Shown here: in pieces, positions 47,189-63,500 of the stretch
Position numbering within the stretch: position 1 is the first letter of the stretch
Layout: the number at the start of each line of letters is the position of its first letter
Origin: Caldithrix abyssi DSM 13497
Lineage (GTDB): Bacteria; Calditrichota; Calditrichia; Calditrichales; Calditrichaceae
Direction of reading: 5' to 3'
DNA length: 64,000 nucleotides
Assembly: GCF_001886815.1 (NCBI RefSeq)
Contig: NZ_CP018099.1
Coordinates: 2,044,501-2,108,500, forward strand
Position numbers and translations under genes: made by a program
Notes under the pieces: model-generated
What the model was told of the DNA's origin: nothing
Seen by the model: only the letters and a program-made list of their open reading frames with translations
Database searches by the model: none

Positions 47189-49196
47189 GGGGCTGTCCCA
47201 AAAGTAAATCAAGATGTATAAATATGCAGGTTTTTAAATATAATTTTATTGGTAAATGTGATACGAAATTATGGAAAAGGTAAAAGATTTCAACAAAAAA
47301 ACATGAATAAAAACAAGATTTAAATTGGTTCTATTTATTGTCTTTAGCACATAAAATAACTTGCATTAATAGTTTGAAAATATTAAATTTAAAATAAAAA
47401 CCATGAAGCCAAAACGTTGTCGGAAAATCCCATTTAAAACTACCGATCAAAACCAACTTACTATTCTTCCGCCTTCATTAGATGAGCTCATAGAACCCAA
47501 TCATATGGTTCGGTTTATCAATGCCATCATAGACAAGATGGATATTGATTTTTTAATTAAAGAATACAAAGGAGGCGGTCGGGCCGCGTATCATCCGCGG
47601 ATGCTATTAAAAGTAGTCATTTATGCCTATACGCAGAAGATATTTACTTCGCGCCAGATAGCTAAGGCCTTAAGAGAGAATATTCATTTCATGTGGTTAT
47701 CAGGGAACAGTCGTCCGGATTTTAGGACGATAAATCGTTTTCGTTCATCACGATTGAAGGGAAAAATAGAGGAAGTATTCACCTATGTAGTTGAGCAATT
47801 ATTGGAGTTGGGCTATATAGGATTAAATGATCTTTTTATAGACGGGAGCAAATTTCAGGCGAATGCGAATAAATACAAGGCAGTCTGGAAGAAGAATGTA
47901 GACCGTTACCAGAGAGTACTTCAAGAGAAGCTAAAGGAATTACTAAAGAAGATAGATAGCGAGAATGCTTTAGAGAATCGTTTATACGGTAATAAAGATT
48001 TAGGAGAATTAGGAGAGGATGTTACTTTAAGCTCTAATCAGATTGAACAAATAGTTGATATATTGAATGAGCGGTTAAAAAAGGAACCGGACAATAAGGA
48101 ATTAAAGAGAGCAAAAAATAAAATAGAGAAGGATTATTTACCGCGCCAACGTAAATATGAAAAGCAACGAAAGCTTCTAAATGGTAGGAATAGCTATAGC
48201 CAGACGGACCCGGATGCTACCTTTATGAGTAAGAAGCGGGATCATCATAATAATACGGATTTGCTTCCGAGTTATAATGTTCAGGTAGGAAGTGAGAATC
48301 AATTTATAGTGAATTATACGATAAATCAGAACGCGAATGATAGCGTATTATTAAAGCCCTTTATGGAGTCATACAAGCGTTGTTATGGTAGGCAACCAAA
48401 TCGAGTAATAGGCGATGCAGGCTATGGAAGTGAGGAGAATTATGCATATTTGGAATCAGAAGGTGTAGAAGCTTATATCAAATACAGTAGTTATTACAAA
48501 GAGCAAAAGAAGTCATACAAAGAGAATCCTTTTTTGATAGATAACATGCGGTATGATAGTGAATTAGATCGCTATGAATGTCCTGCCGGTCGGTATTTAG
48601 AATATGTTGGAGAACAGGAAAGTGTTACGTCGACGGGTTTTAAAGTAAAGCATCGTATTTACCGTAGTGAGAGTTGTGAAGGCTGTGTATTGAAAGAGAA
48701 GTGCTACAAGGGCCAGACTGCACGTGTTGTTAGAGTAAATGTCATGCTTAATGATTATAAAAAGCAGGTTCGTTCTCGATTGAATACGGAAGAAGGAAGA
48801 AGATTAATCAGCAAACGAGGTTCGGAGATAGAAACAATTTTTGGACAAATAAAGCATAATCTAGGAATAAGGGGCTTTTTATTAAGAGGATTAGAGAAAG
48901 TAAAAACAGAATTTGGTATAATAGCAGTAGCGTATAATTTAAAAAAGATGTTTAATCAGATGAAAGAGTACGGTTTAGTTAACGAGATGTATAAGTATAG
49001 CGCTAACATCTTTTTTAATTTAAACCGGGCAAGCCAGTGTCAAAATTTAGGCCCAAAAAATACCATTTTAAAATCGTTAGAGCGGTTTTTTATAGAAATT
49101 AAGGAAAAAATAGTTGTTAAATATTCATCTTGTCTCTTCAACGCCAAAATATGTTTTGTATAAAAATTTACTTTCATCGACTTTTGGGACAGCCCC
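47189..49196. mobile_element. IS1182-type insertion sequence, complete (2008 bp)
   Basis: The perfect 17-bp terminal inverted repeats GGGGCTGTCCCAAAAGT (47189-47205) and ACTTTTGGGACAGCCCC (49180-49196) bound one intact transposase gene. I see no clear target duplication. The interior is more AT-rich than its surroundings and uses AGA/AGG arginine codons freely, unlike neighbouring genes, which points to recent arrival. The right-hand repeat recurs exactly at 62002-62018. Confidence 0.93.
47403..49163 (+). CDS. IS1182 family transposase
   Basis: A 586-residue DDE transposase. The N-terminal DUF772 region has PSLDELIEPNHMVRFIN and HPRMLLKVVIYAYTQKIFTSRQIAKAL. The DDE residues are likely Asp in LFIDGSKFQANAN, Asp in VIGDAGYGSEENY and Glu in KRGSEIETIFGQIKHNLGIRGF. 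A cysteine cluster (YECPAGRYL, CEGCVLKEKCYKG) lies before the last acidic residue, as in the family. A charged coiled-coil insertion at about 170-260 is usual. The frame is intact, so the element may be active. Confidence 0.94.
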   Translation: MKPKRCRKIPFKTTDQNQLTILPPSLDELIEPNHMVRFINAIIDKMDIDFLIKEYKGGGRAAYHPRMLLKVVIYAYTQKIFTSRQIAKALRENIHFMWLSGNSRPDFRTINRFRSSRLKGKIEEVFTYVVEQLLELGYIGLNDLFIDGSKFQANANKYKAVWKKNVDRYQRVLQEKLKELLKKIDSENALENRLYGNKDLGELGEDVTLSSNQIEQIVDILNERLKKEPDNKELKRAKNKIEKDYLPRQRKYEKQRKLLNGRNSYSQTDPDATFMSKKRDHHNNTDLLPSYNVQVGSENQFIVNYTINQNANDSVLLKPFMESYKRCYGRQPNRVIGDAGYGSEENYAYLESEGVEAYIKYSSYYKEQKKSYKENPFLIDNMRYDSELDRYECPAGRYLEYVGEQESVTSTGFKVKHRIYRSESCEGCVLKEKCYKGQTARVVRVNVMLNDYKKQVRSRLNTEEGRRLISKRGSEIETIFGQIKHNLGIRGFLLRGLEKVKTEFGIIAVAYNLKKMFNQMKEYGLVNEMYKYSANIFFNLNRASQCQNLGPKNTILKSLERFFIEIKEKIVVKYSSCLFNAKICFV

Positions 49197-50071: not shown

Positions 50072-50689
50072 ATGGCAGTGAAAACGCATTTTCTTAATTA
50101 CCTTTCCTTATTTCTGATTTCAATCATCCTTTTTAATTGCGCTGGCCCTACGCGCACGGTTAAACGCGTTCAGGTGGACGAAGCCATCGACATTAGCGGG
50201 CGCTGGAACGATACGGATGCCCGTCTTACTGCCGAGGCCATGGTAAAAGACGTGCTTTCCAGACCGTGGCTTAAAAACTTTATCGATGAAAACGGGCGAA
50301 AACCGGTTGTTATCGTGGGACAGATACGCAACCGCACCAGCGAACACATCGAAACGGCCATGTTCATCAAACATATTGAGCGAGAGTTGTTAAACTCCGG
50401 TCAGGTGCAGTTTGTGGCTTCAGACAAAGAACGCGAAGCCCTGCGCAACGAACGATTGGATCAACAAAGTTTTGCCTCGCCAGAGAGCGCCAAGGAGCTG
50501 GCCAATGAATTGGGCGCCGATTTTATGCTGCAGGGCGTCATCACCTCCGTTACCGATTCCTTTGAAGGACGACGCGTGGTCAAATACCAGGTTAATCTGG
50601 AATTAATCGACATCGAAAAAAACACCAAGGTGTGGATCGGCCAGAAAGAAATCAAAAAATATATCGAACAAAGCAAATACAAGTGGTAG
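50072..50689 (+). CDS. LpoB-like lipoprotein (penicillin-binding protein activator family)
   Basis: A 205-residue exported protein, with a signal peptide and probable lipidated Cys24 (ILFNC|AGP, a weak lipobox). The mature domain matches LpoB: VDISG-like DISGRWNDTDARLTAEAMV, PVVIVGQIRNRTSEHI, and ADFMLQGVITSVTD. In E. coli LpoB stimulates PBP1B from the outer membrane. Here it heads a cluster of LPP20-like and COG3014-like lipoproteins, a setting also seen in other phyla where the target is unknown. GGGAGA precedes the ATG. Confidence 0.85.
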   Translation: MAVKTHFLNYLSLFLISIILFNCAGPTRTVKRVQVDEAIDISGRWNDTDARLTAEAMVKDVLSRPWLKNFIDENGRKPVVIVGQIRNRTSEHIETAMFIKHIERELLNSGQVQFVASDKEREALRNERLDQQSFASPESAKELANELGADFMLQGVITSVTDSFEGRRVVKYQVNLELIDIEKNTKVWIGQKEIKKYIEQSKYKW

Positions 50690-50874
50690 GTTTCATGATT
50701 TAAATCCTTTGAAACGATCATTAAGACTGTCACTGCCGAACGGAACGGAAGAGAGACGCTGTTGTAATGGGAGAGTTCTTGATTCCGGGCAGGCGGGATG
50801 ATTGGCTGTTCTTAGGAAACGCGGAGTCTTTTCAAAATTTTCCATAAGTACGTCCCACTTAAGCTGGAATTTAC

Positions 50875-52254
50875 ATGAAAACTGCAAAAAACTTTTTGCT
50901 GATTTTTGTCGGGCTGTGGTTATTAGCCTGCGCTTCCTCCATGCGCCAGGCGCAATATTTTGATACGGTGGTTGCCGATCTCTCTCGCGAAGAATACCAA
51001 CTGGCGCTTAAAAAAATTGAGCAAGCCAAAAAGTTAAATCTCTACCGTCAGAAAGACCGATTGCTTTACTACCTGGATATGGGCATCACCTATTTTTATC
51101 AGGGAGATTATCAACGCAGCAATCAGTACTTTGAAAAGGCCGAGCTGGCCATGGAAGAGTTGTTCACTAAAAGCATTTCGCAGGCCGGCATGTCCTTTTT
51201 TCTCAACGACCTGACCATGGATTATTACGGCGAGGTGCACGAAAATATTTACGTCAACGTGTTCAAAGCGATCAACTACATTAAGCTCGATCGGTTTGAC
51301 GACGCCTTTGTTGAAATCCGGCGCGTGGATATTAAGCTGCGAGAGCTGGAAGACAAATACCGTGAGATGGTAGAAAAGTACAACCAGGCTGACACCACCG
51401 CCATCAATTTTACCTACCAGTCGCCGCGCTTTTACAACGATGTGCTGGCTCACTATCTTTCCTATTTAATTTACCGCACAGAGGGGAGCTTTGACGACTG
51501 CCGCATTGAACTGGAAAAGATTGACGAAGCCTTTCGCCTGCAATCGGATGTGTATTATTTTGAAAAGCCGTCGTTCTTAAAGCAACCATCCATGGAGCGC
51601 GGGGCGCTCTATTTAAGCGTCATGGGGTTTGTCGGACAGGCGCCGCGCAAGATAGCCGTCGGCGGTTTGATTACCACCTACGACAATTACCTGGGCATCA
51701 GCGATTTAAGCGTTCCCATTGCTTTACCGAGAATTCCATTTCCGGGGATGAAAGCAGGTTACCATTTTAAATTCGCCTTTCCGATGATGGTTAGCGGAAA
51801 AACAAAGATAAAACGCGTGGATGTGGCCATCAACGGCCAATATGTCGGAACGCTTGAGCTTTTAGAGGATTTGGGCAAGGTGGCGGTTAAAACCTTCCAG
51901 AGCAAGCAAAAGATCATCTATTTAAAAACTCTGGTGCGCACGGTTACCAAAGGCATTCTGGCGGCCAAGGGCAAAAAGAAGCTGCGTAAAGAATTAAAAG
52001 CCGACGGTTTTTTAGGAGCGTTGCTGGATGCCAGCGTCGATCTGGCGGTTGACGCCACCGAGCAGCCTGATTTGCGCGTGTGGAAAACCATGCCCGATAA
52101 ATGTCTGGCCGGCGAATTTAAGGTGACTCCTGGCAACCATTCGGTGGACGTTACCTGTTACGATGGCGGCGGTCAGGTTTTGTTGCGTAAACATTTTCAG
52201 ACCGAAATCACCACAAAAAACGTCAATCTCATTCATTTTGCAACGCTTCAATAA
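50875..52254 (+). CDS. COG3014-like TPR lipoprotein
   Basis: A 459-residue lipoprotein with a canonical lipobox (LLAC|ASS, Cys19). The N-terminal half is helical and TPR-like (about 30-240), including LLYYLDMGITYFYQGDYQRSNQYFEKAE and the conserved INYIKLDRFDDAFVEIRRVD. The C-terminal half is beta-rich and ends with an Ig-like region (TPGNHSVDVTCYDGGGQVL). COG3014 proteins often lie beside LpoB-like and LPP20 genes. Their function is unknown; a periplasmic scaffold is plausible. No strong ribosome site precedes ATG 50875. Confidence 0.8.
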   Translation: MKTAKNFLLIFVGLWLLACASSMRQAQYFDTVVADLSREEYQLALKKIEQAKKLNLYRQKDRLLYYLDMGITYFYQGDYQRSNQYFEKAELAMEELFTKSISQAGMSFFLNDLTMDYYGEVHENIYVNVFKAINYIKLDRFDDAFVEIRRVDIKLRELEDKYREMVEKYNQADTTAINFTYQSPRFYNDVLAHYLSYLIYRTEGSFDDCRIELEKIDEAFRLQSDVYYFEKPSFLKQPSMERGALYLSVMGFVGQAPRKIAVGGLITTYDNYLGISDLSVPIALPRIPFPGMKAGYHFKFAFPMMVSGKTKIKRVDVAINGQYVGTLELLEDLGKVAVKTFQSKQKIIYLKTLVRTVTKGILAAKGKKKLRKELKADGFLGALLDASVDLAVDATEQPDLRVWKTMPDKCLAGEFKVTPGNHSVDVTCYDGGGQVLLRKHFQTEITTKNVNLIHFATLQ

Positions 52255-52274
52255 AATAAGCAGGAGTGCATGGC

Positions 52275-53312
52275 ATGAAAATACTTTTTAGAATGATCAT
52301 CGCGCTATTGTTCATTCAATTCTGGCAGTGTTCGTACGCGCAAAAATCGAGCGGCGTGCAGCGGGGGAGCGAAAAACCGGCATGGGTAAACAATCCTTAC
52401 GAAGTTTATTCCGAGCATCAATACCTGGTGGGCGTGGGCAGCGGCGATACGCGTGAAGCCGCAGAAAAGAACGCCATGGGGCAAATTGCCAAAATTTTTA
52501 AGACCCATGTTCAGGTGGACGAAACCCTGATTGAAAGCGTATTCGAATCTCTTAAAAAGAACAAAAGCTCCATTAGCAGCGAAACGAATATTTTGAACCG
52601 CACGCGTTTGCAAAGCGACGTGCAGCTAAAAAATGTCAAAATCGGTCAGGTCTTTTTTTCGGAAAAAGAAGGGCTGTACTACGCGCTGGCTTATCTGGAT
52701 CGGGCGGAAACGGCCGCCTTGCTGGAGCAGGATTTTAATGAAAACAATTTACTATTAAAAAGATATTATGAAACCAGTCAAAGCGAGACCAATAAATTGC
52801 GTCAACTGGCCAACATCAACAAAGCGCTGGCCCTGGCTCAGGTTAACAGTTTGATTAACGAACAATACAAGGTATTAACCGGCGGCGACGGTCTGGAACT
52901 GGCGGTCAGCGAAGACGCCCTGCAAAACGCAGCGCGCAAAATCAGAGAAGCGATTGTTGTGCAAATTAGCGGCGAGGGACCTTCTGCTGAAGAGATCGCC
53001 GCTTATTTGCGCGAGGTACTCGGTCGTTTTGGCTTTAGCATGGGCCGGCAAAATCCCCATCTCAGCATTCGCTATCAACTGGAGATGAATAAAACGGATT
53101 TGAATCGGCCGGGCGTTGTGGCTTACAACTGGCATTTCAAGATCGATGTCAACGATTTGATCAATCAGACGACCTTAAAAACGTTTAATATTAACAAGCG
53201 ATCGGCGGCGATTTCGGAAGATGAAGTCCGGGCGCGCGTATTGCGGACGATTAAAAAAGCGCTAACCACGAAATTTTACAAACAATTGATGGATTATTTT
53301 AATTCATTTTAA
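52275..53312 (+). CDS. Exported LPP20-domain protein
   Basis: A 345-residue protein. ATG 52275 follows AGGAG by 8 bp and gives a signal peptide ending CSYAQ; a GTG three codons earlier overlaps that site. The LPP20 domain (about 35-150) shows KPAWVNNPY, YLVGVGSGDTREAAEKNAMGQIAKIFKTHVQ and YYALAYLDRAETAALL. These are the W-x-x, GxG and alanine-rich helix signatures of the family. The C-terminal part (about 220-340) may be a second, divergent LPP20/FlgT-like domain. It lies 20 bp after the COG3014 gene, so the two are co-transcribed. Confidence 0.8.
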   Translation: MKILFRMIIALLFIQFWQCSYAQKSSGVQRGSEKPAWVNNPYEVYSEHQYLVGVGSGDTREAAEKNAMGQIAKIFKTHVQVDETLIESVFESLKKNKSSISSETNILNRTRLQSDVQLKNVKIGQVFFSEKEGLYYALAYLDRAETAALLEQDFNENNLLLKRYYETSQSETNKLRQLANINKALALAQVNSLINEQYKVLTGGDGLELAVSEDALQNAARKIREAIVVQISGEGPSAEEIAAYLREVLGRFGFSMGRQNPHLSIRYQLEMNKTDLNRPGVVAYNWHFKIDVNDLINQTTLKTFNINKRSAAISEDEVRARVLRTIKKALTTKFYKQLMDYFNSF

Positions 53313-53426
53313 AATTTAGAGGTTGCGAATTAATTTAAATTGATGCAGATCAATGCAGTTAAAAAGGAATAGTGCGAATATAAGAAAGCATTTTTCATTC
53401 AAGTCAAATCAATGTAGGAGAACGTC

Positions 53427-54035
53427 ATGAAGCGTTTTATGTTTTTTGCTTTAATTTTAGTCATTGCCTCTGCCCTGATGATTTCGTGCGGAAGTTCGAA
53501 CCCCAAAGTCGCCGCATCGGATCCGGGCGCCATGGAAGTTATTGAAGATCCATTTCAGGATTTAACCGATCTGGCCAACAAAATTATTGAATCCGGCGGG
53601 GTGGCAGCCGTGGGACAGGGCACCTCTGCGCGGCAGGATCTGGCCAAAAAGAAGGCCGTAACCGACGCCATGGGCAACCTGGCGCAGGTTTTTAACACCA
53701 AAGTTCAAAGGCTGAACAAGAGCTTCCAGGAAGAAATCGGCAGCGCAAACGATTCCGAAATTAACGAAGCCTTCACGACGGTTACCAAAACATTGACCAG
53801 TCAATTGTTACGCGGCGCCGTCACCAAAAAAGTTAAGTTCTTGCGCAATAAAGAAACCGGCCAGATTACCGCTGCCGCGGTGGTGGCCATTGATCCCAAA
53901 ACGCTTAATCAATCCATCCTGGATGAATTACAGAACAAGAAACCGCAACTTTACCAGCGTTTTAGAGCCACCAAAGCTTACGAAGAGCTGAAAAAAGAGA
54001 TGGAAGATTACGAAAAACAACAACAGGGCTTCTGA
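53427..54035 (+). CDS. LPP20 family lipoprotein
   Basis: A 202-residue lipoprotein (lipobox LMISC|GSS, Cys21). The LPP20 core runs from about 55 to 165: VAAVGQGTSARQDLAKKKAVTDAMGNLAQVFNTKV, then AAAVVAIDPKTL. The C-terminus is a charged helix (AYEELKKEMEDYEKQQQ). LPP20 was first described as a Helicobacter outer-membrane lipoprotein; FlgP of polar flagella has the same fold. No flagellar genes are near. TAGGAGAA precedes the ATG. Confidence 0.83.
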   Translation: MKRFMFFALILVIASALMISCGSSNPKVAASDPGAMEVIEDPFQDLTDLANKIIESGGVAAVGQGTSARQDLAKKKAVTDAMGNLAQVFNTKVQRLNKSFQEEIGSANDSEINEAFTTVTKTLTSQLLRGAVTKKVKFLRNKETGQITAAAVVAIDPKTLNQSILDELQNKKPQLYQRFRATKAYEELKKEMEDYEKQQQGF

Positions 54036-54355
54036 TCTTTTAACGTGGTTATGCCGGGCGTTTATGCTTGTAGAAAAGCAAGGACCTTAAATAAGCGAAC
54101 CGGCGCTGTTCCTGTGCCACGCAACGATTTTAGTGAGGGACGTCCCCTATGGGGCGTTCCCTCATTTCCCTTTTAAGCAGAGGAAGCGGGCATTTTAATC
54201 GCTACGAACTGATTAAAAAGCACTTTCAAGCGAAAAAAAACAATCGTTGTGCAAAGTCGGAAAGAAACGAACCAGAGACGTTCTTTTCGGCCGAAACCTC
54301 TGGAATGTCGCCGGATTAAAAGGCCCCTGAGGCAAGCCCGGCTATTTCCCATTAA
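54036..54355 (+). other. Intergenic region with terminator in the lipoprotein cluster
   Basis: Apart from the hairpin at 54135-54163, no gene is seen. It probably divides the cluster into two transcription units. Confidence 0.5.
54135..54163 (+). terminator. Terminator-like hairpin
   Basis: GAGGGACGTCCCC can fold onto GGGGCGTTCCCTC around TAT with imperfect pairing in the middle, followed by ATTTCCCTTTT. Confidence 0.55.
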
Positions 54356-55138
54356 ATGATCGTTATTGTCATGATGCGTTTTGTATTGATTAGTATTTTG
54401 GGCAGTCTTTGTTATTTTTCGCAGCTTTTTGCCATTGAAGAATATCCTTCGTGGTTTCTTTATCCAAAAAACTATCCGGGAATTATTGTTGGCTATTCGT
54501 ACGGCGGGCATTCCGCCAGAACCGATGCGGAAAATATGTACTGCGCTTACAAATCGTGCGTGGTCAATGGTACGCTGGAGATATTTGAAGACACCAACGA
54601 ATCGCAGTGGCTGAAAAATTCGGATTATTACTATTATTACTCGCCAGACTCCGTGCTTAAAATTCAGGGCAAACTTTTTGGCATTGATTCTTTTATGACC
54701 AATATTCTCACCGGCGATTATATTGCCGCTTACTCGTTTGAGCAAAGGGATTCCCTGTCAAAAGAATGGATTAACGCCAGGCAACTTAAGGCGCCGCCGT
54801 GGGTAGAAAAGACGTTCTGGGAGGATGAGCGCTATGCCTACGGCGTGGGCCTTTTTACCTCGCGGCGTAATGAGAATGACGCATGGAAAACTGCGGAAGA
54901 ACAGGCCATCTTTAATATTTTGACCAATCTTGCCGTGGGCTTTCATCGCATCAAAATTTTGTACAAAGATCAGACGGATGGGGAATCATCATTTCAGGAA
55001 ATTTCCTTTTTACGAATCAAATATTATTTGAAAGATATAGAAATTGTAGAACGGTATCCGGACCTGGAAAATCAGCTTTTTTATGTTCTGGTGCGCATTG
55101 CAAAAAAGAATATCATCTCGCCCATGTTACGAAGATGA
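54356..55138 (+). CDS. Exported protein with duplicated LPP20-like motifs
   Basis: A 260-residue protein with an N-terminal signal peptide (hydrophobic LISILGSLCYF, ending LFAIEE). Two similar halves are visible: YPSWFLYPKNYPGIIVGYSYGG near residues 30-50 and PPWVEKTFWEDERYAYGVGLFTSRR near 145-170. Each shows the P-x-W and Y-x-x-G-x-G pattern of LPP20 domains, followed by an alanine-rich helix (NENDAWKTAEEQAIFNILTNLAV in the second). The start is uncertain, because two more ATG lie at 54371 and 54374 and no strong ribosome site is seen. Function unknown. Confidence 0.7.
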   Translation: MIVIVMMRFVLISILGSLCYFSQLFAIEEYPSWFLYPKNYPGIIVGYSYGGHSARTDAENMYCAYKSCVVNGTLEIFEDTNESQWLKNSDYYYYYSPDSVLKIQGKLFGIDSFMTNILTGDYIAAYSFEQRDSLSKEWINARQLKAPPWVEKTFWEDERYAYGVGLFTSRRNENDAWKTAEEQAIFNILTNLAVGFHRIKILYKDQTDGESSFQEISFLRIKYYLKDIEIVERYPDLENQLFYVLVRIAKKNIISPMLRR

Positions 55139-55169
55139 TTTGAGATAAAGTTAAATTTGCTGAAGGGCT

Positions 55170-56354
55170 ATGGGGATGTTAAAGGTTATTCTAATGACTT
55201 TGTGCCTGCTTTTAACCGTGCAGGCCTACGATTTTAAGGTAACGGTTAAATGGGATGAAATGGCCATGAGCGGCGAGGCCGAGGCTGTTTTACAATATTA
55301 TCACGATGGCAAGGTGGAAGCCATTCGCGGCAATCTGGATAAACCTTCCAGCGATGGCAATGTGACGGTTAACCGCACGCTAACGGGAGGTTCGCAGGAA
55401 TTCATTATCCATGATGCAAAGGGGGCCTTATTTAATATTTGGGTGATCAACGATTTGATGGATGAGGAATTTGCCGAGGAAGAAGATTTTTACGCTCTTT
55501 CTAACGCTGGCATCGAAGTGTGGGTGGAGGATCGCCTGAATGGCGGCGTTCATTCCATTAAGCTCAAACCGGGGCAAAAGGGGCTGGTGTACCGCGCAGG
55601 CGTTATCTCAGACGGGCATTTTTACGAAGTTAATGAGTTGTTCCTGAAAAAACGGCTTTACGTGGTTAATCTGGTGGATGCGGTCAACGGTCGGCCATTG
55701 GCCGGCGTGGGCGTGGCCATTAAAAATCAGCGTACCGGCGAAACCGTTGCCCTGGGACAGACCGATGCCAATGGGACGTTTATCAGCGAAATGGAATACG
55801 GCGCCTATGATGTGCTTTTTAGCAAGCAAGGGTATCTGGAAGCCAAACATCAATTCGAAATGACCATTATGGAATTGCCGGTAAGCATGCATTTTGCTTT
55901 AACGCCGGAGGTGCGGGAATTTCGTATTATTTTAACCTGGGGCGCCTTTCCTCCGGATCTGGATGCCCATTTAAGCGGGCCGCGTCCAGGCGGCGGAACG
56001 TTCCACATCTGGTGGCGCAATAAAACGCCCATCGGCGGCCGAAATTTTCTGGACCGCGACGATCAGCACTCTTACGGTCCGGAAACCATCACCATTTATA
56101 AACCGGCGCCCGGAGTTTACACCTATGCCGTGCACAATTACAGCGGCCGAATGCACCGGGGCAGCCGCGACCTTTCGTACAGCGGCGCCCATGTGGATGT
56201 TTATGCCGATGGTCGGTTGGTGGCCAGCTTTGACGCACCGCGCGGCGTCAAAGGCAATGTGTGGAAGGTCTTTCAAATCGATCGCAATAATCAGGTGGCG
56301 CCCATTAACCAATTTTACGATCAAAAAGAGTCGGCGCAGGTGTTAAATCCCTGA
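55170..56354 (+). CDS. Exported protein with carboxypeptidase-regulatory-like and DUF2135 (YfaP-like) domains
   Basis: A 394-residue protein with a signal peptide ending TVQAY. The N-terminal third is beta-rich and unassigned. A CarboxypepD_reg-like Ig domain lies at about 165-235 (VVNLVDAVNGRPLAGVGVAIKN, GQTDANGTFISEM). The C-terminal domain at about 250-375 has LTWGAFPPDLDAHLSGP, YGPETITIY and GVYTYAVHNYSG. This matches DUF2135/YfaP, a family of secreted beta proteins often next to surface-protein and von Willebrand-type genes. The DLDAH motif may bind a metal. It lies in line with the lipoprotein genes. Confidence 0.78.
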   Translation: MGMLKVILMTLCLLLTVQAYDFKVTVKWDEMAMSGEAEAVLQYYHDGKVEAIRGNLDKPSSDGNVTVNRTLTGGSQEFIIHDAKGALFNIWVINDLMDEEFAEEEDFYALSNAGIEVWVEDRLNGGVHSIKLKPGQKGLVYRAGVISDGHFYEVNELFLKKRLYVVNLVDAVNGRPLAGVGVAIKNQRTGETVALGQTDANGTFISEMEYGAYDVLFSKQGYLEAKHQFEMTIMELPVSMHFALTPEVREFRIILTWGAFPPDLDAHLSGPRPGGGTFHIWWRNKTPIGGRNFLDRDDQHSYGPETITIYKPAPGVYTYAVHNYSGRMHRGSRDLSYSGAHVDVYADGRLVASFDAPRGVKGNVWKVFQIDRNNQVAPINQFYDQKESAQVLNP

Positions 56355-56475
56355 CTTAATGCTTCCTGCCCGGCGCTGTTTGCTGGCGAAAAAAGATGGG
56401 AAAGGCGTTGGCTAAAACGACAAAGGCCAGTACGCCCATACCGGCCAGTGTAAAATCAAAATGATTGGAGAAATC

Positions 56476-57927
56476 ATGCGCATGGGACATATTTTTATCT
56501 ATCTGGCGCTTGGCGCGTTAATATCGGGCCAAGGCCTGTTTGCTCAGGATGATGAGTTTCAGAAATGGCTGGAAAAAGATCAGGCGCAGTTTAAGCAGTT
56601 TGTGGAGCAGGAAGATAAAGACTTTGCCGAATTTTTGAAAAAAGACTGGCAGGCTTTTTTAACCGAACAAGGCATAAAAACCTTCTCCAGGCCAAAACCG
56701 CCTAAAATGCCCGTTGCCCGTGAAGAGGACAAACCAAAACCGCAAGTACCTGTCAAAAAGATTGAAGAATTGCCGCTCCCGCCTCCAAAACCTGTGGTTA
56801 AACCAAAGCCGCGCCCCCTGCCCAGGCCTCAAAAGCAGGCTATTACCGTGAATTTTTACGGCGCCAGGCTCAATTTTCCCGCGGTGCGATTGAAATCAAT
56901 AAACCTTAAAAGTCCGCTAACCAGCGAAAAGATCAGCCAGGCCTGGCTGGCCATGGCGGCCACCGATTACAAACCGCTGGTTTCGGCCCTGCAACAAACC
57001 CAAAAACAGTTACTATTAAACGACTGGGCTTTTCTGGAGCTGATAGACAAGGCGGTTCGCAAAAATTTTGCAAACGATCCCAATATCTGCACGGCTTATA
57101 ACTGGTTTTTATTGAATAAGCTGGGTTACGACGCAAAGGTCGCCTTTAAAGCCGATAAGTTATTTTTACTCATGCCTTCTAAAAATACGATTTTTGAACA
57201 ACCTTTTGTTAAGATTAACAACCAGCGCTATTACTTCATCTCGCTTAATGAAAGGCTGAATTTGAGCGGCAAGATCCGCACCTATCGCGGAACTTTTAAA
57301 AACGCGGATCAACCTCTTCGTTTAACCCTGAACCGTTTGCCGGTTTTCGCCATTACGCCTGGCGAAAAAGCCATGCATTTTACCTTTAACGGCAAACAAT
57401 ATCAGCTTTCCGCGCAGTACGACGTGCAACTGGTGCGTTTTCTGGAAAACTATCCGCAAACTGATTTAACCGTGTATTTTGCGGCGCCGGTTTCCGGCGA
57501 GCTGAATTATTCTTTGCTTACGCAATTACGGCCCATGGTGCAGGGCAAAAGCGAGCTGGAGGCGGTGAATTTGCTCTTACGCTTTGTGCAAACAGCCTTT
57601 AAATACCAGACAGATGACCAGCAATTTGGTCGTGAAAAATGTTTGCTGCCGGACGAAACGCTTTATTACCCGGCCAGCGATTGTGAAGACCGTTCCGTTC
57701 TGTTCGCTTTTTTGGTGCGTCATTTGCTGGGATTAGAGATCATTGGGCTGGATTACCCCAATCACATTGCCACGGCGGTGTGTTTTAATTCTCAGATTCC
57801 GGGCGCCGCGGTGGAATACAAAGGAAAACGATTCGTGATTTGCGATCCTACCTACATCAATGCCGACGCGGGAATGGTGATGCCCGATTTTAAAGACGTT
57901 AATCCCAAAATTATTGAATTAAAATGA
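56476..57927 (+). CDS. Exported transglutaminase-like protein with N-terminal 11-residue repeats
   Basis: The 483-residue protein starts at ATG 56476 (GGAG 5 bp upstream). A signal peptide ends LFAQ. Residues 28-61 are an 11-residue repeat with aromatics at F28, F39, F50 and F61 and again three positions later (W31, F42, F53). A Pro/Lys-rich linker (about 75-130) follows. The C-terminal domain has a transglutaminase-type triad: Cys403 in ASDCEDRSVLF, His430 in YPNHIATAV and Asp457 in VICDPTY, with even spacing of 27 residues. It could be a protease or a cross-linking enzyme. The gene downstream carries the same 11-residue repeat. Confidence 0.82.
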   Translation: MRMGHIFIYLALGALISGQGLFAQDDEFQKWLEKDQAQFKQFVEQEDKDFAEFLKKDWQAFLTEQGIKTFSRPKPPKMPVAREEDKPKPQVPVKKIEELPLPPPKPVVKPKPRPLPRPQKQAITVNFYGARLNFPAVRLKSINLKSPLTSEKISQAWLAMAATDYKPLVSALQQTQKQLLLNDWAFLELIDKAVRKNFANDPNICTAYNWFLLNKLGYDAKVAFKADKLFLLMPSKNTIFEQPFVKINNQRYYFISLNERLNLSGKIRTYRGTFKNADQPLRLTLNRLPVFAITPGEKAMHFTFNGKQYQLSAQYDVQLVRFLENYPQTDLTVYFAAPVSGELNYSLLTQLRPMVQGKSELEAVNLLLRFVQTAFKYQTDDQQFGREKCLLPDETLYYPASDCEDRSVLFAFLVRHLLGLEIIGLDYPNHIATAVCFNSQIPGAAVEYKGKRFVICDPTYINADAGMVMPDFKDVNPKIIELK

Positions 57928-58013
57928 ACTGACGCTTAAATACGTATGATGAGAACGGCATTTTAAATTTTGAGATTTGAAGCGACAGAAAACAGCAACG
58001 AGGAGAAAAGGCG

Positions 58014-58805
58014 ATGAAAATACATTGTTTGGGCTGGATGGTCATTTTGTTCTTTACTTCTGTTACGCTTGCTCAGGAGCCGCTGGGCAAGGTGACCTTT
58101 CCCATCGGGAAGAATTTTTTGCAGCATGCGGGGCAGCTGGAATGGCAGCCGGTTAAATATTACATGCCGGTGCTGGAAAAAGATCGCCTTAAAACAGGTA
58201 AACAATCGCGCTGCGAAATTACTTTTAAAAACAAGAAAGTGATGCGCATCGGCGAGAATTCGGTGATCAGCATTACGCGCGATAAAATGGGCAATGAACA
58301 GGTAGAAATGAGTCGCGGCCGGGCCTGGATCAGCTTGTTTTTAAAGGGGGTGGCCTCGCTGGTGGTTAAAACGCCCACTTCTGTTTGCGCCGTGCGCGGC
58401 ACAGTCTATCGCCTGGAAAGCGACTCTAACATGACCCGCTATCGTTGTTATGAAGGAGCCCTGGAGATTACCCCCTTAAAAAAAGATCGCTCGGGGTTGG
58501 CCGATACTTCGCTCACTTTAAGCGCCGGCCAGGAATTAATTCTGGTGATGAATTTTGAAGAGTACAAAAAGCAACAGCAAAAGGAATTTGAAGAATTTAA
58601 GAAAAAGGACGCTGACGATTTTGAACAATTCATAAAAGAGGAGCGAAAAGCGTTTGAAGACATGGTGGCTAAAGACCTGGCGGAATTTAAGCAGATGCAG
58701 GATGTGGCTTATAAAATGACTGCATTTGATGCGCAGGAAGACGCCAATTCCGACTGGGTGCAATGGAATAAAGAGCGCGACCGTTTAATGCAAGAAGGTG
58801 AATGA
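58014..58805 (+). CDS. Exported FecR-domain protein with C-terminal 11-residue repeats
   Basis: A 263-residue protein with a signal peptide ending TLAQ. The FecR-like beta domain (about 40-180) shows EKDRLKTGKQSRCEITFKNKKVMRIGENS, RGRAWISLF and the hallmark VVKTPTSVCAVRGTVYRLE, with CYEGALEITP. This is a free periplasmic FecR domain without the anti-sigma N-terminus. Residues 181-228 form five 11-residue repeats with Phe at 181, 192, 203, 214 and 225 and an aromatic or Met three residues later. GAGGAGAAAAGG precedes the ATG. The stop overlaps the next start (ATGATG), so the two are coupled. Confidence 0.86.
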   Translation: MKIHCLGWMVILFFTSVTLAQEPLGKVTFPIGKNFLQHAGQLEWQPVKYYMPVLEKDRLKTGKQSRCEITFKNKKVMRIGENSVISITRDKMGNEQVEMSRGRAWISLFLKGVASLVVKTPTSVCAVRGTVYRLESDSNMTRYRCYEGALEITPLKKDRSGLADTSLTLSAGQELILVMNFEEYKKQQQKEFEEFKKKDADDFEQFIKEERKAFEDMVAKDLAEFKQMQDVAYKMTAFDAQEDANSDWVQWNKERDRLMQEGE

Positions 58806-59212
58806 TGAGGAGGGTATTTTTATTAATATTAGCCGCCGGCCTTATTTTGTTTGCCTGTAAAAATGAAAAAGATAAACAGGGTAATGAATCGACGGTAGAG
58901 ACTGCGGACAGCGATTCGCTTGCGTTGCAGGTGAAGAATGCGCCGCAGTGGGCGCTTTCCGTTCCGCAGAAAGAGGGTTATCTGTACGCTGTTGGTAAGG
59001 GCAGCTCGCTGCGCCCGGAGTTGGCCAGGAAAAAAGCCATGCTGGAGGCGCGCGTAAAATTGGCTGAAAAGCTGAGCGGGCGCGGCGATAGTTTGAATGT
59101 TTTTTTACGCCGCAGCCGTGTAAAAGAGGAAACGCAGATCAAAGATGGTGGACGCTGGCGGAGCTTTGTGCTGCTGGAGGTTCCGTTGGCGGACGGTGAG
59201 AAGGTGGAATAG
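58802..59212 (+). CDS. Small LPP20-like lipoprotein
   Basis: A 136-residue lipoprotein (lipobox LILFAC|KN, Cys19). After an acidic linker, the LPP20 core is seen: APQWALSVPQKEGYLYAVGKGSSLRPELARKKAMLEARVKLAEKL, then SFVLLEVPLADG. It is the last gene of the cluster and overlaps the FecR gene by 4 bp. Two ATG in tandem (58802, 58805) are possible starts. Confidence 0.8.
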   Translation: MMRRVFLLILAAGLILFACKNEKDKQGNESTVETADSDSLALQVKNAPQWALSVPQKEGYLYAVGKGSSLRPELARKKAMLEARVKLAEKLSGRGDSLNVFLRRSRVKEETQIKDGGRWRSFVLLEVPLADGEKVE

Positions 59213-59591: not shown

Positions 59592-61932
59592 CTGACCTTT
59601 ACCCACACATAGCACCGTGGGTTATGGGCCGTCTCGGCTTGAAGTAAAAATAATATACATCTCGGTTGCCGTATCCAATCGCTGTATTCCTCGCCAGAGC
59701 GTTACTGTGCCAGGCTCGCCATCACTCTTTCTGCCTAAATGGCCTCCGATCTGACCTACCATACGGATGGCTTCTCGTAAACTCATCGGCTCCTCCGGCG
59801 CTATGGGCGTCTTATGCACATAGCAATACAACGCTTTCCATTCCTCTTCTTTGAAAAATACGCTCGCCGGCGAATCCGGTATTTCACGACCTAACATGGT
59901 CATATGATAAATGCGCCAGGCTACAACCATATCCACGGCTAAGGCCGTCTCTAAACGATCCGCACTGCCTAATTGACGATCTTTTATGCGGCAGCCGCTC
60001 TTGAGCGTTCGATGATATATCTCGATACCCCAACGACGAGTGTACCACTGCACTCGTTGATAGGCATCAGTAAAATTCTCTACCGACACCGTGGTCAATA
60101 ACATCCACTCTATTGGACTCTTAATATCAGCTGGCGGATCGACCTCTCGGATATAAACAGCCCACACCTTAATGGGCTTAGAGGACGAAAATCGTTTCGG
60201 CGGTTCTAAGTCTATCGACGAATAACGCAAGGACATCTTGGCCTCACGAGCCCTGATATTGCCCCTACGAGGAACATGAATTTGAAATTGACCGCGCTCT
60301 TCTTGACTGGACATGTAATCCCACAGATCAATTCCGGCCACTTTGCGATTGCGGCGCTTGCCCACGCGTACCAAAAGTCCTGCCTTGCTATCTTTCCTTT
60401 GAGCCTCATGAAATAATTCGTAGATATCCGCCTCTCGATCGCCCACGCTTACGATAAGCGTCTCCGGACATAACTTAGCGATCTCGTTGACCCGGCGATA
60501 ACTACGTAACCATTTCATACTCTCTTTTTGCTCAATGGGTAATTCCTTCCGACGACGCGTCTTGCCTCGATCCTTCGGATCACGAGCCCATACCTGGGCA
60601 TCCAATACGCCTAACGGCGTGCCATCCTCACTAAAGGCCAATGTATCATGTAAAATCAAGCCAATGCTCTGGTGATCTATATGGCTTGTCGGCCCCAAGT
60701 CTTTGGTCATGGGATGCGTGCTGTAGTCTAAAATGGTCGTGTCCTGAGGCGCTAAAACCACCTTGTGTTCTTTTATGCGATCTATCGTCGCCTCGGTATG
60801 TGCATCTAAAATAATATCCATGGTTACCTTCTCGTTTTGAAAAAATCGATAGGCGCCCATCGTGCGCGCCTTACCACCACAGGCCTCCGGAATGTTGGCC
60901 TGCGGCTTGTTGTAAAAGTCATCCGCTATGGCGTACAAACGCTGTTTGAGACGATTGTCATATAAGCGAATGCTGCCAAATTCCCGCTCCGCCCAATTCG
61001 ATGAGTCTTTGATTAATCGTCCTTGGCCTAAACCGTCCGCACTCTCCTGACACAAAATCTTTCGCCAGTTCCTTTGCAATGGATAAAGAAATACCTTTTT
61101 GGCGATACCGTCACGACGACCGCTGGTATTTCCTACATAAAGCCAGTTGGAAGCCAGGTAACCGATGCCTTTGAAAACACTAGAATCCACATAACTTTCC
61201 ACCAAAACCGGGCGATAACCATAACGACTCTCCCAATCGGTTCCAATACGCTGCAAGGCTTTACTCAACAGAAATGAAGCCAGATTCTTGACCTTAACCG
61301 TAGGTACGATCAAAAAACGATCATTACTGATCACATACTGGATATTCTCCCTTCGCGCCTTTTCGCTCCAGCCAATATAGGCATCCCTGGCTCGTAATTT
61401 ATAAGTCGCTGAACTAAAGCCTAAAGCGCCAATATAGCCATACTTCTCGCTTTTTACAATATAGCGAATCTGAGCGCCACAAAGTTTTGCGCTTTTAAGG
61501 TAATGGAAATTCTCTATTAACTGAAACCATGCGCGCGAATCCTTGCTGTAGCGGCTTTTGATCGGCTCGATTACAATTTCGCCTAAAACCGATAAATGGC
61601 CTTCAATGGAGGCGATTGGAACATCAAGCTTACGCTTTTTCTTTTTTTCAAAAGCATAGCTTTTTTTTCGTTCTGGTAATTTGATTAAACCGCGCCGATC
61701 CAGCTCTAATAAGGCTTTACGGCAGCTCATCTCCTGGAATTTCCCATTGGGAGATTTCCAGTCCATCAGTTCGCATACCTCTCGTGATAATTTCCTACGA
61801 GATATCTGCGGCTGCCGGGCAATGATCGCATTAATACGTTTTAATATTGGTTCGCTAAAAATTTTCCCATATATTTGCATGTAGAAAATTTAACAAATTA
61901 TTCCCCCTGTGTCAAGTGTGTGCCAGGTCCAG
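59592..61932. mobile_element. IS4/Tn5-type insertion sequence with 10-bp target duplication (2341 bp)
   Basis: The 10-bp sequence CGATTTCGGG is present at 59582-59591 and again at 61933-61942, directly flanking the element. The ends are imperfect inverted repeats: left CTGACCTTTACCCACACATA, right (reverse complement) CTGGACCTGGCACACACTTG. The 9-13 bp duplication is usual for IS4-related elements. It contains one complete transposase gene on the minus strand. Confidence 0.85.
59622..61880 (-). CDS. IS4/Tn5-type transposase with N-terminal DruA-like (DUF4338) domain
   Basis: A 752-residue fusion. Residues about 1-70 form a helical DNA-binding-like region (PQISRRKLSREVCELM). About 75-270 resemble DUF4338/DruA: LCGAQIRYIVKSEKYGYIGALGFSSA, DAYIGWSEKARREN, FLIVPTVKVKNLASFLLSKAL and LVESYVDSSVFKGIGYLASNWLYVG. 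The rest is a Tn5/IS4 DDE transposase: GAYRFFQNEKV, VLAPQDTTILDYS (first Asp), VSVGDREADIYELF (second Asp) and WGIEIYHRTLKSGCRI (Glu, YREK-like). The frame is intact. DruA is known from the Druantia anti-phage system; here the domain probably serves transposition. Confidence 0.88.
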   Translation of the reverse strand: MQIYGKIFSEPILKRINAIIARQPQISRRKLSREVCELMDWKSPNGKFQEMSCRKALLELDRRGLIKLPERKKSYAFEKKKKRKLDVPIASIEGHLSVLGEIVIEPIKSRYSKDSRAWFQLIENFHYLKSAKLCGAQIRYIVKSEKYGYIGALGFSSATYKLRARDAYIGWSEKARRENIQYVISNDRFLIVPTVKVKNLASFLLSKALQRIGTDWESRYGYRPVLVESYVDSSVFKGIGYLASNWLYVGNTSGRRDGIAKKVFLYPLQRNWRKILCQESADGLGQGRLIKDSSNWAEREFGSIRLYDNRLKQRLYAIADDFYNKPQANIPEACGGKARTMGAYRFFQNEKVTMDIILDAHTEATIDRIKEHKVVLAPQDTTILDYSTHPMTKDLGPTSHIDHQSIGLILHDTLAFSEDGTPLGVLDAQVWARDPKDRGKTRRRKELPIEQKESMKWLRSYRRVNEIAKLCPETLIVSVGDREADIYELFHEAQRKDSKAGLLVRVGKRRNRKVAGIDLWDYMSSQEERGQFQIHVPRRGNIRAREAKMSLRYSSIDLEPPKRFSSSKPIKVWAVYIREVDPPADIKSPIEWMLLTTVSVENFTDAYQRVQWYTRRWGIEIYHRTLKSGCRIKDRQLGSADRLETALAVDMVVAWRIYHMTMLGREIPDSPASVFFKEEEWKALYCYVHKTPIAPEEPMSLREAIRMVGQIGGHLGRKSDGEPGTVTLWRGIQRLDTATEMYIIFTSSRDGP

Positions 61933-62057: not shown

Positions 62058-63500
62058 TTAACGCTTCCAGAAAATGGGCACAAACAAAACAAGCACCGTG
62101 TAAATTTCCAGCCGCCCGGCAAGCATTAAAAAGGAAAGAAACCATTTACCGATCAACGGCAGATGGGCGTAATTTTCCGTGGGGCCCACCGAGCCGAATC
62201 CCGGACCGATATTATTGATGGTTGCCGCCACACTCCCAATACAGGTTTCCCAGTTTAATCCCAGCCCGCTCATGAACAAAACGCCAATAATCGAAAGCAG
62301 AATGTAGAGCAGAGTAAAACCGGCGATGTTGGTTACGATTTCTTGCGGCACGCTACGCTTGCCCACGCGAACCACAAAAACGGCATTGGGATGCAGCAAT
62401 TGTTTGACCTGATTGATGGCAAACTTGAATAAAATGATGGAGCGAATGATTTTCATGCCGCCGCCGGTCGAGCCGGCGCATCCGCCAAAATACATTAAAA
62501 TGATCAAAACAACTTTTGACAAAATTGGCCATTGCTCGTAATCTGATGTACCGTAACCAGTTGTGGTAATGATCGAAACCACCTGAAACAGCACATGGCG
62601 AAAAGAAAATTGTTCATAGCCCAATATGGAAAGAATATCAATGGCGATAAAGACGGTGGCCGCCAGAATAATGGCCATAAATGTGAGTGTTTCCGGATCT
62701 TTAAAATAGCTGAAAAACTTTCCTTTAAATGCCCGGTAATGTAAAGAAAAATTAGTTCCGGCAATAATCATGAACACAATGATGATGTAGTCGATCAAGC
62801 CGCTGTTAAAGGCGCCAACGCTGGCATTCTTTGTGGAAAATCCTCCCGTGGCCATGGTGCCAAAGGTGTGACACCAGGCGTCGAACCAGTTCATGCCGGC
62901 CAGTTTCAAGGCAACAGCCTCAATAACGCTGATAGCCACATAAACCACCCACAAAAGCTCGGCGGTGTGCTTAATGCGCGGCGTTAAACGATCTGGCGTG
63001 GGGCCGGGAACCTCGGCTTTAAAAAGCTGCATGCCGCCAATGCCCAGTAAAGGTAATATTGCCAGCGAAAGGAGAATAATGCCCATTCCCCCCAGCCAGT
63101 GCGTTAATGAGCGCCAGAAAAGCAAGCCTTCAGGCAGGGCTTCGATATCGGTTAAAATGGAGGCGCCGGTGGTGGTAAAGCCGGACATGGTTTCAAAAAA
63201 GGCGTCGGTATAGGATGGAATGAAGCCGCTAAAATAGAAGGGCAGGGCGCCAAACAGGGCGTAAAGCGTCCAGCCCAGGGTAACGATCAAAAAGCCGTCT
63301 TTAATATCCAGTGTAACCTCGCCGCGCGTCAGCAAAAAGAGGGGCAAGGCCACTATCAAAAGCACGCCCATGGTTTGCAAAAACGCTATTTCGTCGGGCT
63401 CGGCAAAATTGAACGAGATCAACAGGGGAATGATCAGCACAACGATCATAAAGAGGAGCAGCGCGCTCAGAACATGGAAAATACTGCGATAATGAATCAT
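62058..63500 (-). CDS. trkH: Trk-type potassium uptake membrane subunit
   Basis: A 480-residue K+ channel subunit with four P-loop repeats. Selectivity-type segments are TMSGFTTTGAS, FGTMATGGFSTKNAS, VVSIITTTGYGTSDYEQW and ATINNIGPGFGSVGP. It imports K+ at the inner membrane with TrkA as the nucleotide-binding partner, encoded 7 bp upstream. GCAGSTGGGMKIIR is the conserved membrane loop. The small IS-related element ends only 39 bp past its stop. The C-terminus (FVPIFWKR) is normal. Confidence 0.95.
   Translation of the reverse strand: MIHYRSIFHVLSALLLFMIVVLIIPLLISFNFAEPDEIAFLQTMGVLLIVALPLFLLTRGEVTLDIKDGFLIVTLGWTLYALFGALPFYFSGFIPSYTDAFFETMSGFTTTGASILTDIEALPEGLLFWRSLTHWLGGMGIILLSLAILPLLGIGGMQLFKAEVPGPTPDRLTPRIKHTAELLWVVYVAISVIEAVALKLAGMNWFDAWCHTFGTMATGGFSTKNASVGAFNSGLIDYIIIVFMIIAGTNFSLHYRAFKGKFFSYFKDPETLTFMAIILAATVFIAIDILSILGYEQFSFRHVLFQVVSIITTTGYGTSDYEQWPILSKVVLIILMYFGGCAGSTGGGMKIIRSIILFKFAINQVKQLLHPNAVFVVRVGKRSVPQEIVTNIAGFTLLYILLSIIGVLFMSGLGLNWETCIGSVAATINNIGPGFGSVGPTENYAHLPLIGKWFLSFLMLAGRLEIYTVLVLFVPIFWKR

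What the first reader, a model, noticed from the sequence alone, without database searches (positions are those of the whole stretch)
50072..59212. Nine-gene envelope lipoprotein cluster: LpoB, COG3014, four LPP20-like proteins, DUF2135, transglutaminase-like and FecR proteins
All nine genes point the same way and all products carry signal peptides or lipoboxes. LPP20-type domains recur at least four times (52275, 53427, 54356, 58802), joined by an LpoB-like protein, a TPR lipoprotein, a triad-bearing transglutaminase-like enzyme and a FecR domain without an anti-sigma partner. No flagellar, curli or PBP genes are near, so known roles of these families do not explain the set. It may encode a periplasmic or outer-membrane assembly. 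This is the best candidate in the window for an undescribed system.
Basis: partly seen in the sequence, partly recalled or inferred. Interest (0 to 1): 0.75.

Follow-up and report, generated by a model that had tools for sequence, protein, structure and literature searches.

The report
Conserved bacterial cell-envelope lipoprotein–protease system
Nine neighbouring genes in a heat-loving bacterium make a set of envelope proteins (lipoproteins plus a secreted cysteine enzyme) that is kept together in its relatives and, in part, in several other bacterial phyla including gut Bacteroides, often next to cell-wall-building or cell-wall-cutting enzymes, so it is probably an undescribed cell-wall/outer-membrane maintenance system.

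Summary
The nine genes are real and conserved. The transglutaminase-like gene (g7) has relatives in Cloacimonadota, Bacteroidota, Deferribacterota, Desulfobacterota, Latescibacterota and others, with an invariant Cys-His-Asp triad. Its neighbours recur: a g4-type LPP20 gene beside it in 15 of 20 full-length Bacteroidota loci. In five Bacteroidota genomes LpoB–COG3014–LPP20–g4–MltC (lytic transglycosylase) lies divergently from g7; Deferribacterota carry g7–g4–LPP20–MltC; Cloacimonadota carry g7 after a class A PBP. g7's N-terminus, g8's C-terminus and MltC's N-terminus share an 11-residue aromatic helix repeat. Flagellar genes do not track the cluster. The closest described systems are Campylobacter cj0089–0091 and Helicobacter HP0018/HP1457, where a TPR lipoprotein was pulled down with AmiA and MltD. 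Best reading: an outer-membrane lipoprotein scaffold with a secreted cysteine peptidase, acting in peptidoglycan/envelope maintenance. The unit is well supported; the chemistry is inferred. Canonical LpoB→PBP1B activation is not supported: the only class A PBP lacks a detectable UB2H domain. DUF2135 was not confirmed.

The parts
50072..50689 (+). g1: LpoB-family lipoprotein (205 aa, lipobox LFNC)
   Evidence: PF13036 4.6e-43; TIGR02722 101 bits, below the equivalog cut-off 110.55; conserved in 15 loci
50875..52254 (+). g2: COG3014-like long TPR lipoprotein (459 aa, lipobox LLAC)
   Evidence: weak TPR hits; invariant Cys, 41-51% identity in 12 loci; adjacent to LpoB in every intact locus of the family and in family f6
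52275..53312 (+). g3: LPP20-domain lipoprotein (345-348 aa; GTG start at 52266 also possible)
   Evidence: PF02169 2.4e-12; profile hits H. pylori HP1454 structure 4kzs E 0.001
53427..54035 (+). g4: second LPP20-fold lipoprotein, the most widespread partner of g7
   Evidence: profile hit to Lpp20 5ok8 E 1e-4; AF2 model pLDDT 84, Foldseek Lpp20 prob 1.00; hhalign with g3 98%
54356..55138 (+). g5: secreted protein, remote LPP20-like domain in its C-terminal half
   Evidence: PF02169 0.096; hhalign with g3 74%, E 3e-5; not with g4
55170..56354 (+). g6: secreted protein with carboxypeptidase-regulatory-like domain and a conserved C-terminal domain
   Evidence: PF13620 2.9e-8; DUF2135 not found; 56-75% identity in 10 loci
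56461..57927 (+). g7: secreted transglutaminase-like cysteine enzyme (488 aa): helical repeat, Pro-rich linker, catalytic C-terminal domain
   Evidence: triad conserved in 80/80 relatives; AF2 pLDDT 91; best PDB neighbour LapG, prob 0.95 but E 0.027
56548..56685 (+). g7 N-terminal 11-residue aromatic helix repeat shared with g8 C-terminus and MltC N-terminus
   Evidence: hhalign scores 33.7 (MltC) and 28.2 (g8) vs column-shuffle maxima 13.1 and 15.2
57682..57846 (+). g7 stretch holding the catalytic triad C408, H435, D462
   Evidence: invariant columns in A10, 62 sequences
58014..58805 (+). g8: secreted FecR-domain protein with C-terminal helical repeat
   Evidence: PF04773 1.1e-14; repeat at codons 180-240
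58551..58733 (+). g8 C-terminal 11-residue aromatic helix repeat
   Evidence: FYW spacing 11/22/3/8, hhalign vs g7 and MltC above all 40 shuffles
58802..59212 (+). g9: small LPP20-like lipoprotein (136 aa, lipobox LFAC)
   Evidence: PF02169 22.7 bits, cut-off 25.9; hhalign with g4 99.6%; overlaps g8 by 4 bp

Best explanation
The nine genes encode one envelope-maintenance module at the outer membrane-peptidoglycan interface. Five lipoproteins (LpoB-type g1, COG3014/TPR-type g2, LPP20-type g3, g4, g9), probably sorted to the outer membrane, form a scaffold, LPP20 folds being known to self-associate. The scaffold recruits secreted proteins: the cysteine enzyme g7, and the FecR protein g8 that carries the same helical repeat. 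g7 then cuts (or exchanges) a peptide bond in a wall- or envelope-anchored substrate, in step with local wall synthesis or lysis; in other phyla the scaffold is paired with MltC-type lytic transglycosylases or class A PBPs. Shown: the genes, domains, triad, shared repeat, conserved gene set and repeated adjacency to peptidoglycan enzymes. Inferred: outer-membrane location, scaffold assembly, docking by the repeat, and the wall as the site of action. Substrate and reaction are unknown.
For: Exact nine-gene order in six other Calditrichaceae genomes plus fragments; g7 in 15/15 genomes of the family. g7 in 334 candidate places in many phyla, 22/51 Deferribacterota, 50/395 Bacteroidota. Partners recur: near-complete sets in KSB1, Ignavibacteria and Cloacimonadota records (L069, L097, L174); five Bacteroidota genomes with g7 divergent from LpoB-COG3014-LPP20-g4-MltC(SLT); Deferribacterota g7-g4-LPP20-MltC; Cloacimonadota g7 beside PBP1a in 22 loci and g6-g4 in the RuvX-MltG block. 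15/20 full-length Bacteroidota g7 loci have g4 within 6 kb, P about 1e-23 for unlinked genes. Shared repeat in g7, g8 and MltC above all shuffles, and the g7 profile by itself picks up the downstream 391-aa ORF in G070/G071. Experimental relatives: deletion of the TPR lipoprotein HP0018 changes cell shape and causes hypervesiculation, and HP0018 co-precipitates AmiA and MltD (PMC11394524); the LpoB homologue Cj0091 is outer-membrane (PMC3100323); FlgP self-associates into disks and interacts with Lpp20 (PMC11756786).
Against: No experiment here. The window genome has no MltC_N protein above cut-off; its only class A PBP is 1.4 Mb away and has no detectable UB2H domain. Cloacimonadota adjacency lies in long housekeeping blocks, so it is weak evidence. 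The helical repeat could be convergent. C. jejuni Cj0089 was found with the inner membrane (PMC3100323), against an all-outer-membrane scaffold. g7 is rare in Desulfobacterota (4/148). Deletion of Lpp20 (HP1456) itself had no visible motility or bacitracin phenotype in H. pylori (PMC11756786).
Confidence: 0.5

Rival explanations
1. A LapG-like surface-protein control system: g7 is a periplasmic cysteine protease that clips an outer-membrane-anchored surface protein, and the lipoproteins and FecR protein regulate or present the substrate.
For: Best solved-structure match of the g7 model is LapG (4fgo/4fgq, prob 0.85-0.95); the triad fits a cysteine protease; FecR domains and g6's beta-sandwich domain are typical of surface/periplasmic binding (general knowledge).
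Against: The match is weak (E 0.027, TM 0.43-0.47 by target); no LapD- or LapA-like gene was noticed in the listed neighbourhoods (not systematically searched); repeated adjacency is to LpoB, MltC and PBPs rather than adhesins.
Confidence: 0.22
2. A flagellar outer-membrane accessory: LPP20-type and LpoB/FlgT_M-type proteins form a ring or sheath-associated disk.
For: Lpp20, FlgP and FlgT share folds and FlgP builds the basal disk (PMC11756786); the window genome has a flagellar gene set (PMC5317091); g1 has a sub-threshold FlgT_M hit; two Bacteroidota g7 loci lie beside tandem flagellin-like genes.
Against: G013 (96% complete) and G014 (94%) carry the full nine genes without a detected flhA; all ten genomes of families f2 and f4 have flhA without g7; g7 occurs in Cloacimonadota and Bacteroides, groups generally without flagella (own knowledge).
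Confidence: 0.06
3. A curli-like or CsgG-like secretion/assembly system using g1 as the pore-forming lipoprotein.
For: LpoB and CsgG models overlap on the same region of the Bacteroides relative, suggesting a shared fold.
Against: g1 scores LpoB at 4.6e-43 and CsgG not at all; no CsgA/E/F-like partner was seen.
Confidence: 0.05
4. A syntenic block of functionally unrelated envelope genes kept together by shared regulation only.
For: The 320-bp gap between g4 and g5 and no promoter signal above shuffles; Cloacimonadota split the genes between two loci.
Against: Recurrent re-association of the same families in different orders and orientations in several phyla; g4 homologues found in 15/20 g7-bearing genomes tested, often at another locus; shared domains between members.
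Confidence: 0.1

Closest known systems
Campylobacter jejuni cj0089-cj0090-cj0091 lipoprotein operon / Helicobacter pylori HP0018, HP1456 (Lpp20), HP1457 (PMC3100323, PMC11394524, PMC11756786)
   Same: A 453-aa TPR lipoprotein (window g2 is 459 aa) in an operon with a 207-aa LpoB homologue (g1 is 205 aa) and a small lipoprotein; HP1457 (LpoB-like) and Lpp20 are H. pylori counterparts; linked to peptidoglycan hydrolases and envelope integrity.
   Different: No transglutaminase-like, FecR or g6 gene is described there; whether Cj0089 and g2 are homologous could not be tested here (no Campylobacter sequence reachable); Cj0089 is inner-membrane.
E. coli LpoB-PBP1B activation
   Same: g1 belongs to Pfam LpoB with a full-length match.
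   Different: Below the NCBIfam equivalog cut-off; the only class A PBP of the genome has no detectable UB2H domain.
LapG periplasmic cysteine protease
   Same: Transglutaminase-like fold, Cys-His-Asp order, periplasmic export.
   Different: g7 is much larger (repeat, linker, extra domains), the structural match is weak and no LapD/LapA partner was seen.
MltC lytic transglycosylase (Mltc_N + SLT)
   Same: Its N-terminal helical repeat resembles those of g7 and g8, and it sits in the same locus in Bacteroidota, Deferribacterota and Desulfobacterota.
   Different: Absent from the window cluster; g7 and g8 have no SLT domain and do not match Pfam Mltc_N.
LPP20-family proteins (FlgP, HP1456, HP1454)
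   Same: g3, g4, g9 share the fold and lipidation.
   Different: Not linked to flagellar genes here.

Membership tests
LpoB (PBP1B activator) | Full-length LpoB domain on an exported lipoprotein | tested here: met
   PF13036 4.6e-43, positions 1-147/147, lipobox LFNC
LpoB (PBP1B activator) | Passes the curated LpoB equivalog model | tested here: not met
   TIGR02722 101 bits, cut-off 110.55
LpoB (PBP1B activator) | Partner class A PBP with UB2H docking domain | tested here: not met
   Only one Transgly protein in the genome; Pfam at E<=0.01 finds Transgly and Transpeptidase only
LPP20 family | LPP20 domain/fold on a lipoprotein (g3, g4, g9) | tested here: met
   g3 Pfam above cut-off; g4 by profile vs 5ok8 and model vs Lpp20; g9 by hhalign with g4 99.6%
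LPP20 family | g5 carries an LPP20 domain | tested here: inconclusive
   Pfam 0.096; hhalign 74% vs g3, 3% vs g4
Transglutaminase-like cysteine enzymes | Cys-His-Asp triad in order | tested here: met
   Invariant in 62 aligned sequences, motif in 80/80
Transglutaminase-like cysteine enzymes | Pfam Transglut_core above cut-off | tested here: not met
   16.5 bits, cut-off 23; DUF553 in 4 of 62 relatives at best 2.6e-4
LapG (BTLCP) | Close structural match over the catalytic domain plus LapD/LapA partners | tested here: inconclusive
   Foldseek prob 0.95, E 0.027; partners not systematically searched
MltC lytic transglycosylase | Mltc_N and SLT domains in g7 or g8 | tested here: not met
   No Pfam Mltc_N or SLT hit in g7, g8 or the g7 relatives; only the helical repeat is alike
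FecR / anti-sigma system | FecR domain with neighbouring sigma factor/TonB receptor | tested here: not met
   FecR domain 1.1e-14; none of the listed ORFs around the cluster is recognisable as such
DUF2135 (YfaP) | Pfam DUF2135 match in g6 | tested here: not met
   None at E<=10 in 10 homologues
Flagellar accessory (FlgO/FlgP/FlgT) | Co-occurrence with flagellar genes | tested here: not met
   flhA not found with full cluster in G013, G014; present without g7 in f2 and f4
Campylobacterota cj0089-0091 type operon | Homology of g2 to Cj0089/HP0018 | not testable with these tools
   No Campylobacterota sequence could be reached; similarity is of length, TPR, lipobox and neighbour (PMC3100323)

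The most novel reading that the evidence does not exclude
A previously undescribed, multi-phylum peptidoglycan-remodelling machine: an outer-membrane lipoprotein scaffold that couples a new class of secreted transglutaminase-like peptidase or transpeptidase to lytic transglycosylases and wall synthases through a shared 11-residue helical docking repeat, present also in gut Bacteroides.
Probability: 0.3. Interest if true: 0.8.

Novelty: new variant of a known kind. Interest (0 to 1): 0.6.

Why it matters
It turns nine 'hypothetical/lipoprotein' genes into one testable system with a clear core (LPP20 lipoproteins + triad-bearing cysteine enzyme + LpoB/TPR lipoproteins) found in several phyla, most of them uncultured, and in a genetically tractable genus (Bacteroides). 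It offers a candidate for how diderms without E. coli-type Lpo–PBP pairing coordinate outer membrane and wall growth, gives a gene-neighbourhood link between LPP20 proteins (function long unclear even in Helicobacter) and peptidoglycan enzymes, and may help to explain why HP0018 loss alters cell shape and vesiculation.

Tried and rejected
Flagellar role: rejected by presence/absence of flhA against g7 across 40 Calditrichota genomes. Curli: g1 is LpoB, not CsgG. A BLAST hit of g7 to a 585-aa ORF in L030 (22.6%) was dropped because the deep g7 profile finds nothing in that genome; the 246-aa ORF next to it looked FecR-like by eye but Pfam finds only TPR-type hits. Internal duplication of g7 (tandem transglutaminase folds): the alignment register looks suggestive but the score 18.3 is below the shuffle maximum 22.5, so not claimed. 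Rfam search of the window gave nothing. Promoter-like sites are at shuffle level (13 vs 12.5 expected), so no operon claim rests on them. PDB profile searches with g7, g2, g8 gave no credible relative. Plasmid search with g2 found nothing, with g7 found the Bacteroides finegoldii record.
Full report
WHAT IS THERE. The window lies in a 4.98-Mb single-contig genome of Calditrichota (close records are titled Caldithrix). Nine + strand ORFs lie at 50072–59212: g1 LpoB-family lipoprotein, g2 COG3014-like TPR lipoprotein, g3 LPP20 lipoprotein, g4 and g9 further LPP20-type lipoproteins, g5 a secreted remote LPP20-like protein, g6 a secreted protein with a carboxypeptidase-regulatory-like domain, g7 a secreted transglutaminase-like enzyme, g8 a FecR-domain protein. 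The cluster is bracketed by two transposase genes (47403–49163 and 59622–61880), but several relatives keep a TrkH-like gene on the g9 side as in the window (62058–63500), so the transposases look like later insertions rather than carriers.

CONSERVATION IN THE FAMILY. A search of 40 Calditrichota genomes with g2 found it in 14 of the 15 genomes of the window's family. tblastn and ORF calls on the fetched loci show the same nine genes in the same order and strand in G004, G005, G008, G010, G013 and G014, and contig-limited parts of it in the others. g7 is in 15 of 15 genomes of the family, and in only 2 of the other 25. Two genomes of family f6 keep only g1–g2. Some relatives (G001, G003, G006, G010) have an extra ~500-aa gene between g6 and g7 that the window lacks; the one from G010 has LPP20 and DUF4384 domains.

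BEYOND THE FAMILY. A genome-collection scan with the g7 alignment gave 334 relatives; the best 80 come from Cloacimonadota, KSB1, Neomarinimicrobiota, Ignavibacteria, Latescibacterota, Desulfobacterota, Deferribacterota and others (taxon names are those of MAG records and some are probably mis-binned). Profile annotation of those loci shows near-complete sets in KSB1 (L069: g1-g2-g3-g4-g7) and Ignavibacteria (L097: eight of nine families), and g7–g4 pairs in Desulfobacterota, Deferribacterota and Latescibacterota. Five Deferribacterota/Desulfobacterota loci carry a lytic transglycosylase of the Mltc_N+SLT type after g7–g4–small lipoprotein (Pfam on three of them), and three further Deferribacterota genomes repeat it (L210, L214, L217; L211 is the same contig as L098). 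In Cloacimonadota g7 follows a class A PBP and a glycosyltransferase in 22–25 loci, while g6–g4 sit in another block that holds a RuvX-like gene and MltG (YceG); one genome reached through a Cloacimonadota record (L174, G040) has LpoB–COG3014–LPP20…g4…g7…g6 in one place. Of 20 g7-bearing genomes tested, 15 have a g4 homologue somewhere.

BACTEROIDOTA. g7 was found in 50 of 395 sampled Bacteroidota genomes. Of 20 full-length loci fetched, 15 have a g4-type LPP20 gene nearby and 7 an LpoB gene; with even five unlinked copies per genome the chance values are about 1e-23 and 1e-8. Related genomes are not independent, so these values overstate the strength. Five genomes, with g7 46–66% identical to each other, have g7 divergent from LpoB–COG3014–LPP20–g4–MltC; both MltC proteins scanned have SLT and Mltc_N above cut-off. 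This single locus joins the Calditrichaceae set with the Deferribacterota MltC cassette. Bacteroides finegoldii has LpoB/FlgT_C-like–DUF6175–LPP20–LPP20(g4)–unknown–g7.

STRUCTURE AND THE SHARED REPEAT. The g7 model is confident (pLDDT 91); nothing in the PDB matches it well, the best being LapG. g4's model matches Lpp20. The N-terminus of g7 (F..F.......F..F), the C-terminus of g8 and the N-terminus of the MltC proteins share 11-residue aromatic spacing; profile scores exceed all 40 column shuffles in each pair. The g7 profile independently finds a 391-aa ORF next to g7 in two Deferribacterota genomes (matching over query positions 5–144), the position and size of the MltC protein. Convergent helices cannot be excluded.

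HOW IT MIGHT WORK. Lipoprotein +2 residues (A, A, S, G, K) give no inner-membrane retention signal by the E. coli rule (own knowledge), so the lipoproteins are probably outer-membrane. LPP20-fold proteins can self-associate (FlgP disks; PMC11756786). The TPR lipoprotein HP0018, whose C. jejuni homologue Cj0089 is in an operon with the LpoB homologue Cj0091, was pulled down with the wall hydrolases AmiA and MltD, and its loss changes cell shape and vesiculation (PMC11394524, PMC3100323). By analogy I propose an outer-membrane scaffold that positions g7, g8 and, in other phyla, lytic transglycosylases or PBPs. The reaction of g7 is unknown. Canonical LpoB→PBP1B activation is not supported because no UB2H domain was found in the single class A PBP, and the window genome has no MltC_N protein above cut-off.

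ALTERNATIVES. A LapG-like surface protease system remains open. A flagellar role is disfavoured: full clusters without a detected flhA in two nearly complete genomes, and flhA without g7 in two whole families.

VERDICT.

Noticed in passing
window 59622-61880 (-): 752-aa ORF joining a DruA (Druantia-type, PF14236) N-terminal part to a Tn5-type transposase (Tnp_DNA_bind, Dimer_Tnp_Tn5); could be a fused or composite mobile-element gene.
   Followed up: no
window 47403-49163 (+): DDE transposase directly upstream of the cluster; with the downstream transposase it brackets the nine genes, though relatives suggest that the location is ancestral.
   Followed up: partly
window 45149-46990 (+): FG-GAP/ASPIC protein with a Por secretion (type IX) sorting tail; relatives of it lie just upstream of g1 in several genomes.
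   Followed up: no
L147 2893-4365; L145 255-1772; L036 4743-6269; L032 6256-7788: Extra ~490-510 aa gene between g6 and g7 (or before g7) in sister genomes, LPP20+DUF4384 in the one scanned, missing from the window.
   Followed up: partly
L142 7116-9233 (genome 3.235-3.237 Mb): A second LPP20 gene of the same genome (450 aa) beside a small outer-membrane beta-barrel gene; KSB1 L059 has a similar barrel-like ORF next to g4.
   Followed up: no
L058 10113-12776: An 887-aa protein with g9-like N-terminus, CARDB and a caspase-like (Peptidase_C14) domain directly downstream of g7; the record is labelled Nanoarchaeota, probably mis-binned.
   Followed up: no
L275 7387-14444; L276: Six nearly identical flagellin-like genes in tandem immediately upstream of g7 in a Bacteroidota genome, and a similar row in a second one.
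   Followed up: no
L232 (NZ_OY725910.1): Bacteroides finegoldii 'plasmid 8' carries chromosome-type genes (dprA, U32 peptidase, Sus genes); possibly a chromosomal fragment recorded as a plasmid.
   Followed up: no
L264 5748-9107: A PBP2-type transpeptidase gene lies three genes upstream of g7 in another Bacteroidota genome.
   Followed up: partly
L176 10783-12054; L232 7162-8427: DUF6175 proteins recur beside LPP20 genes in both Neomarinimicrobiota and Bacteroides.
   Followed up: no
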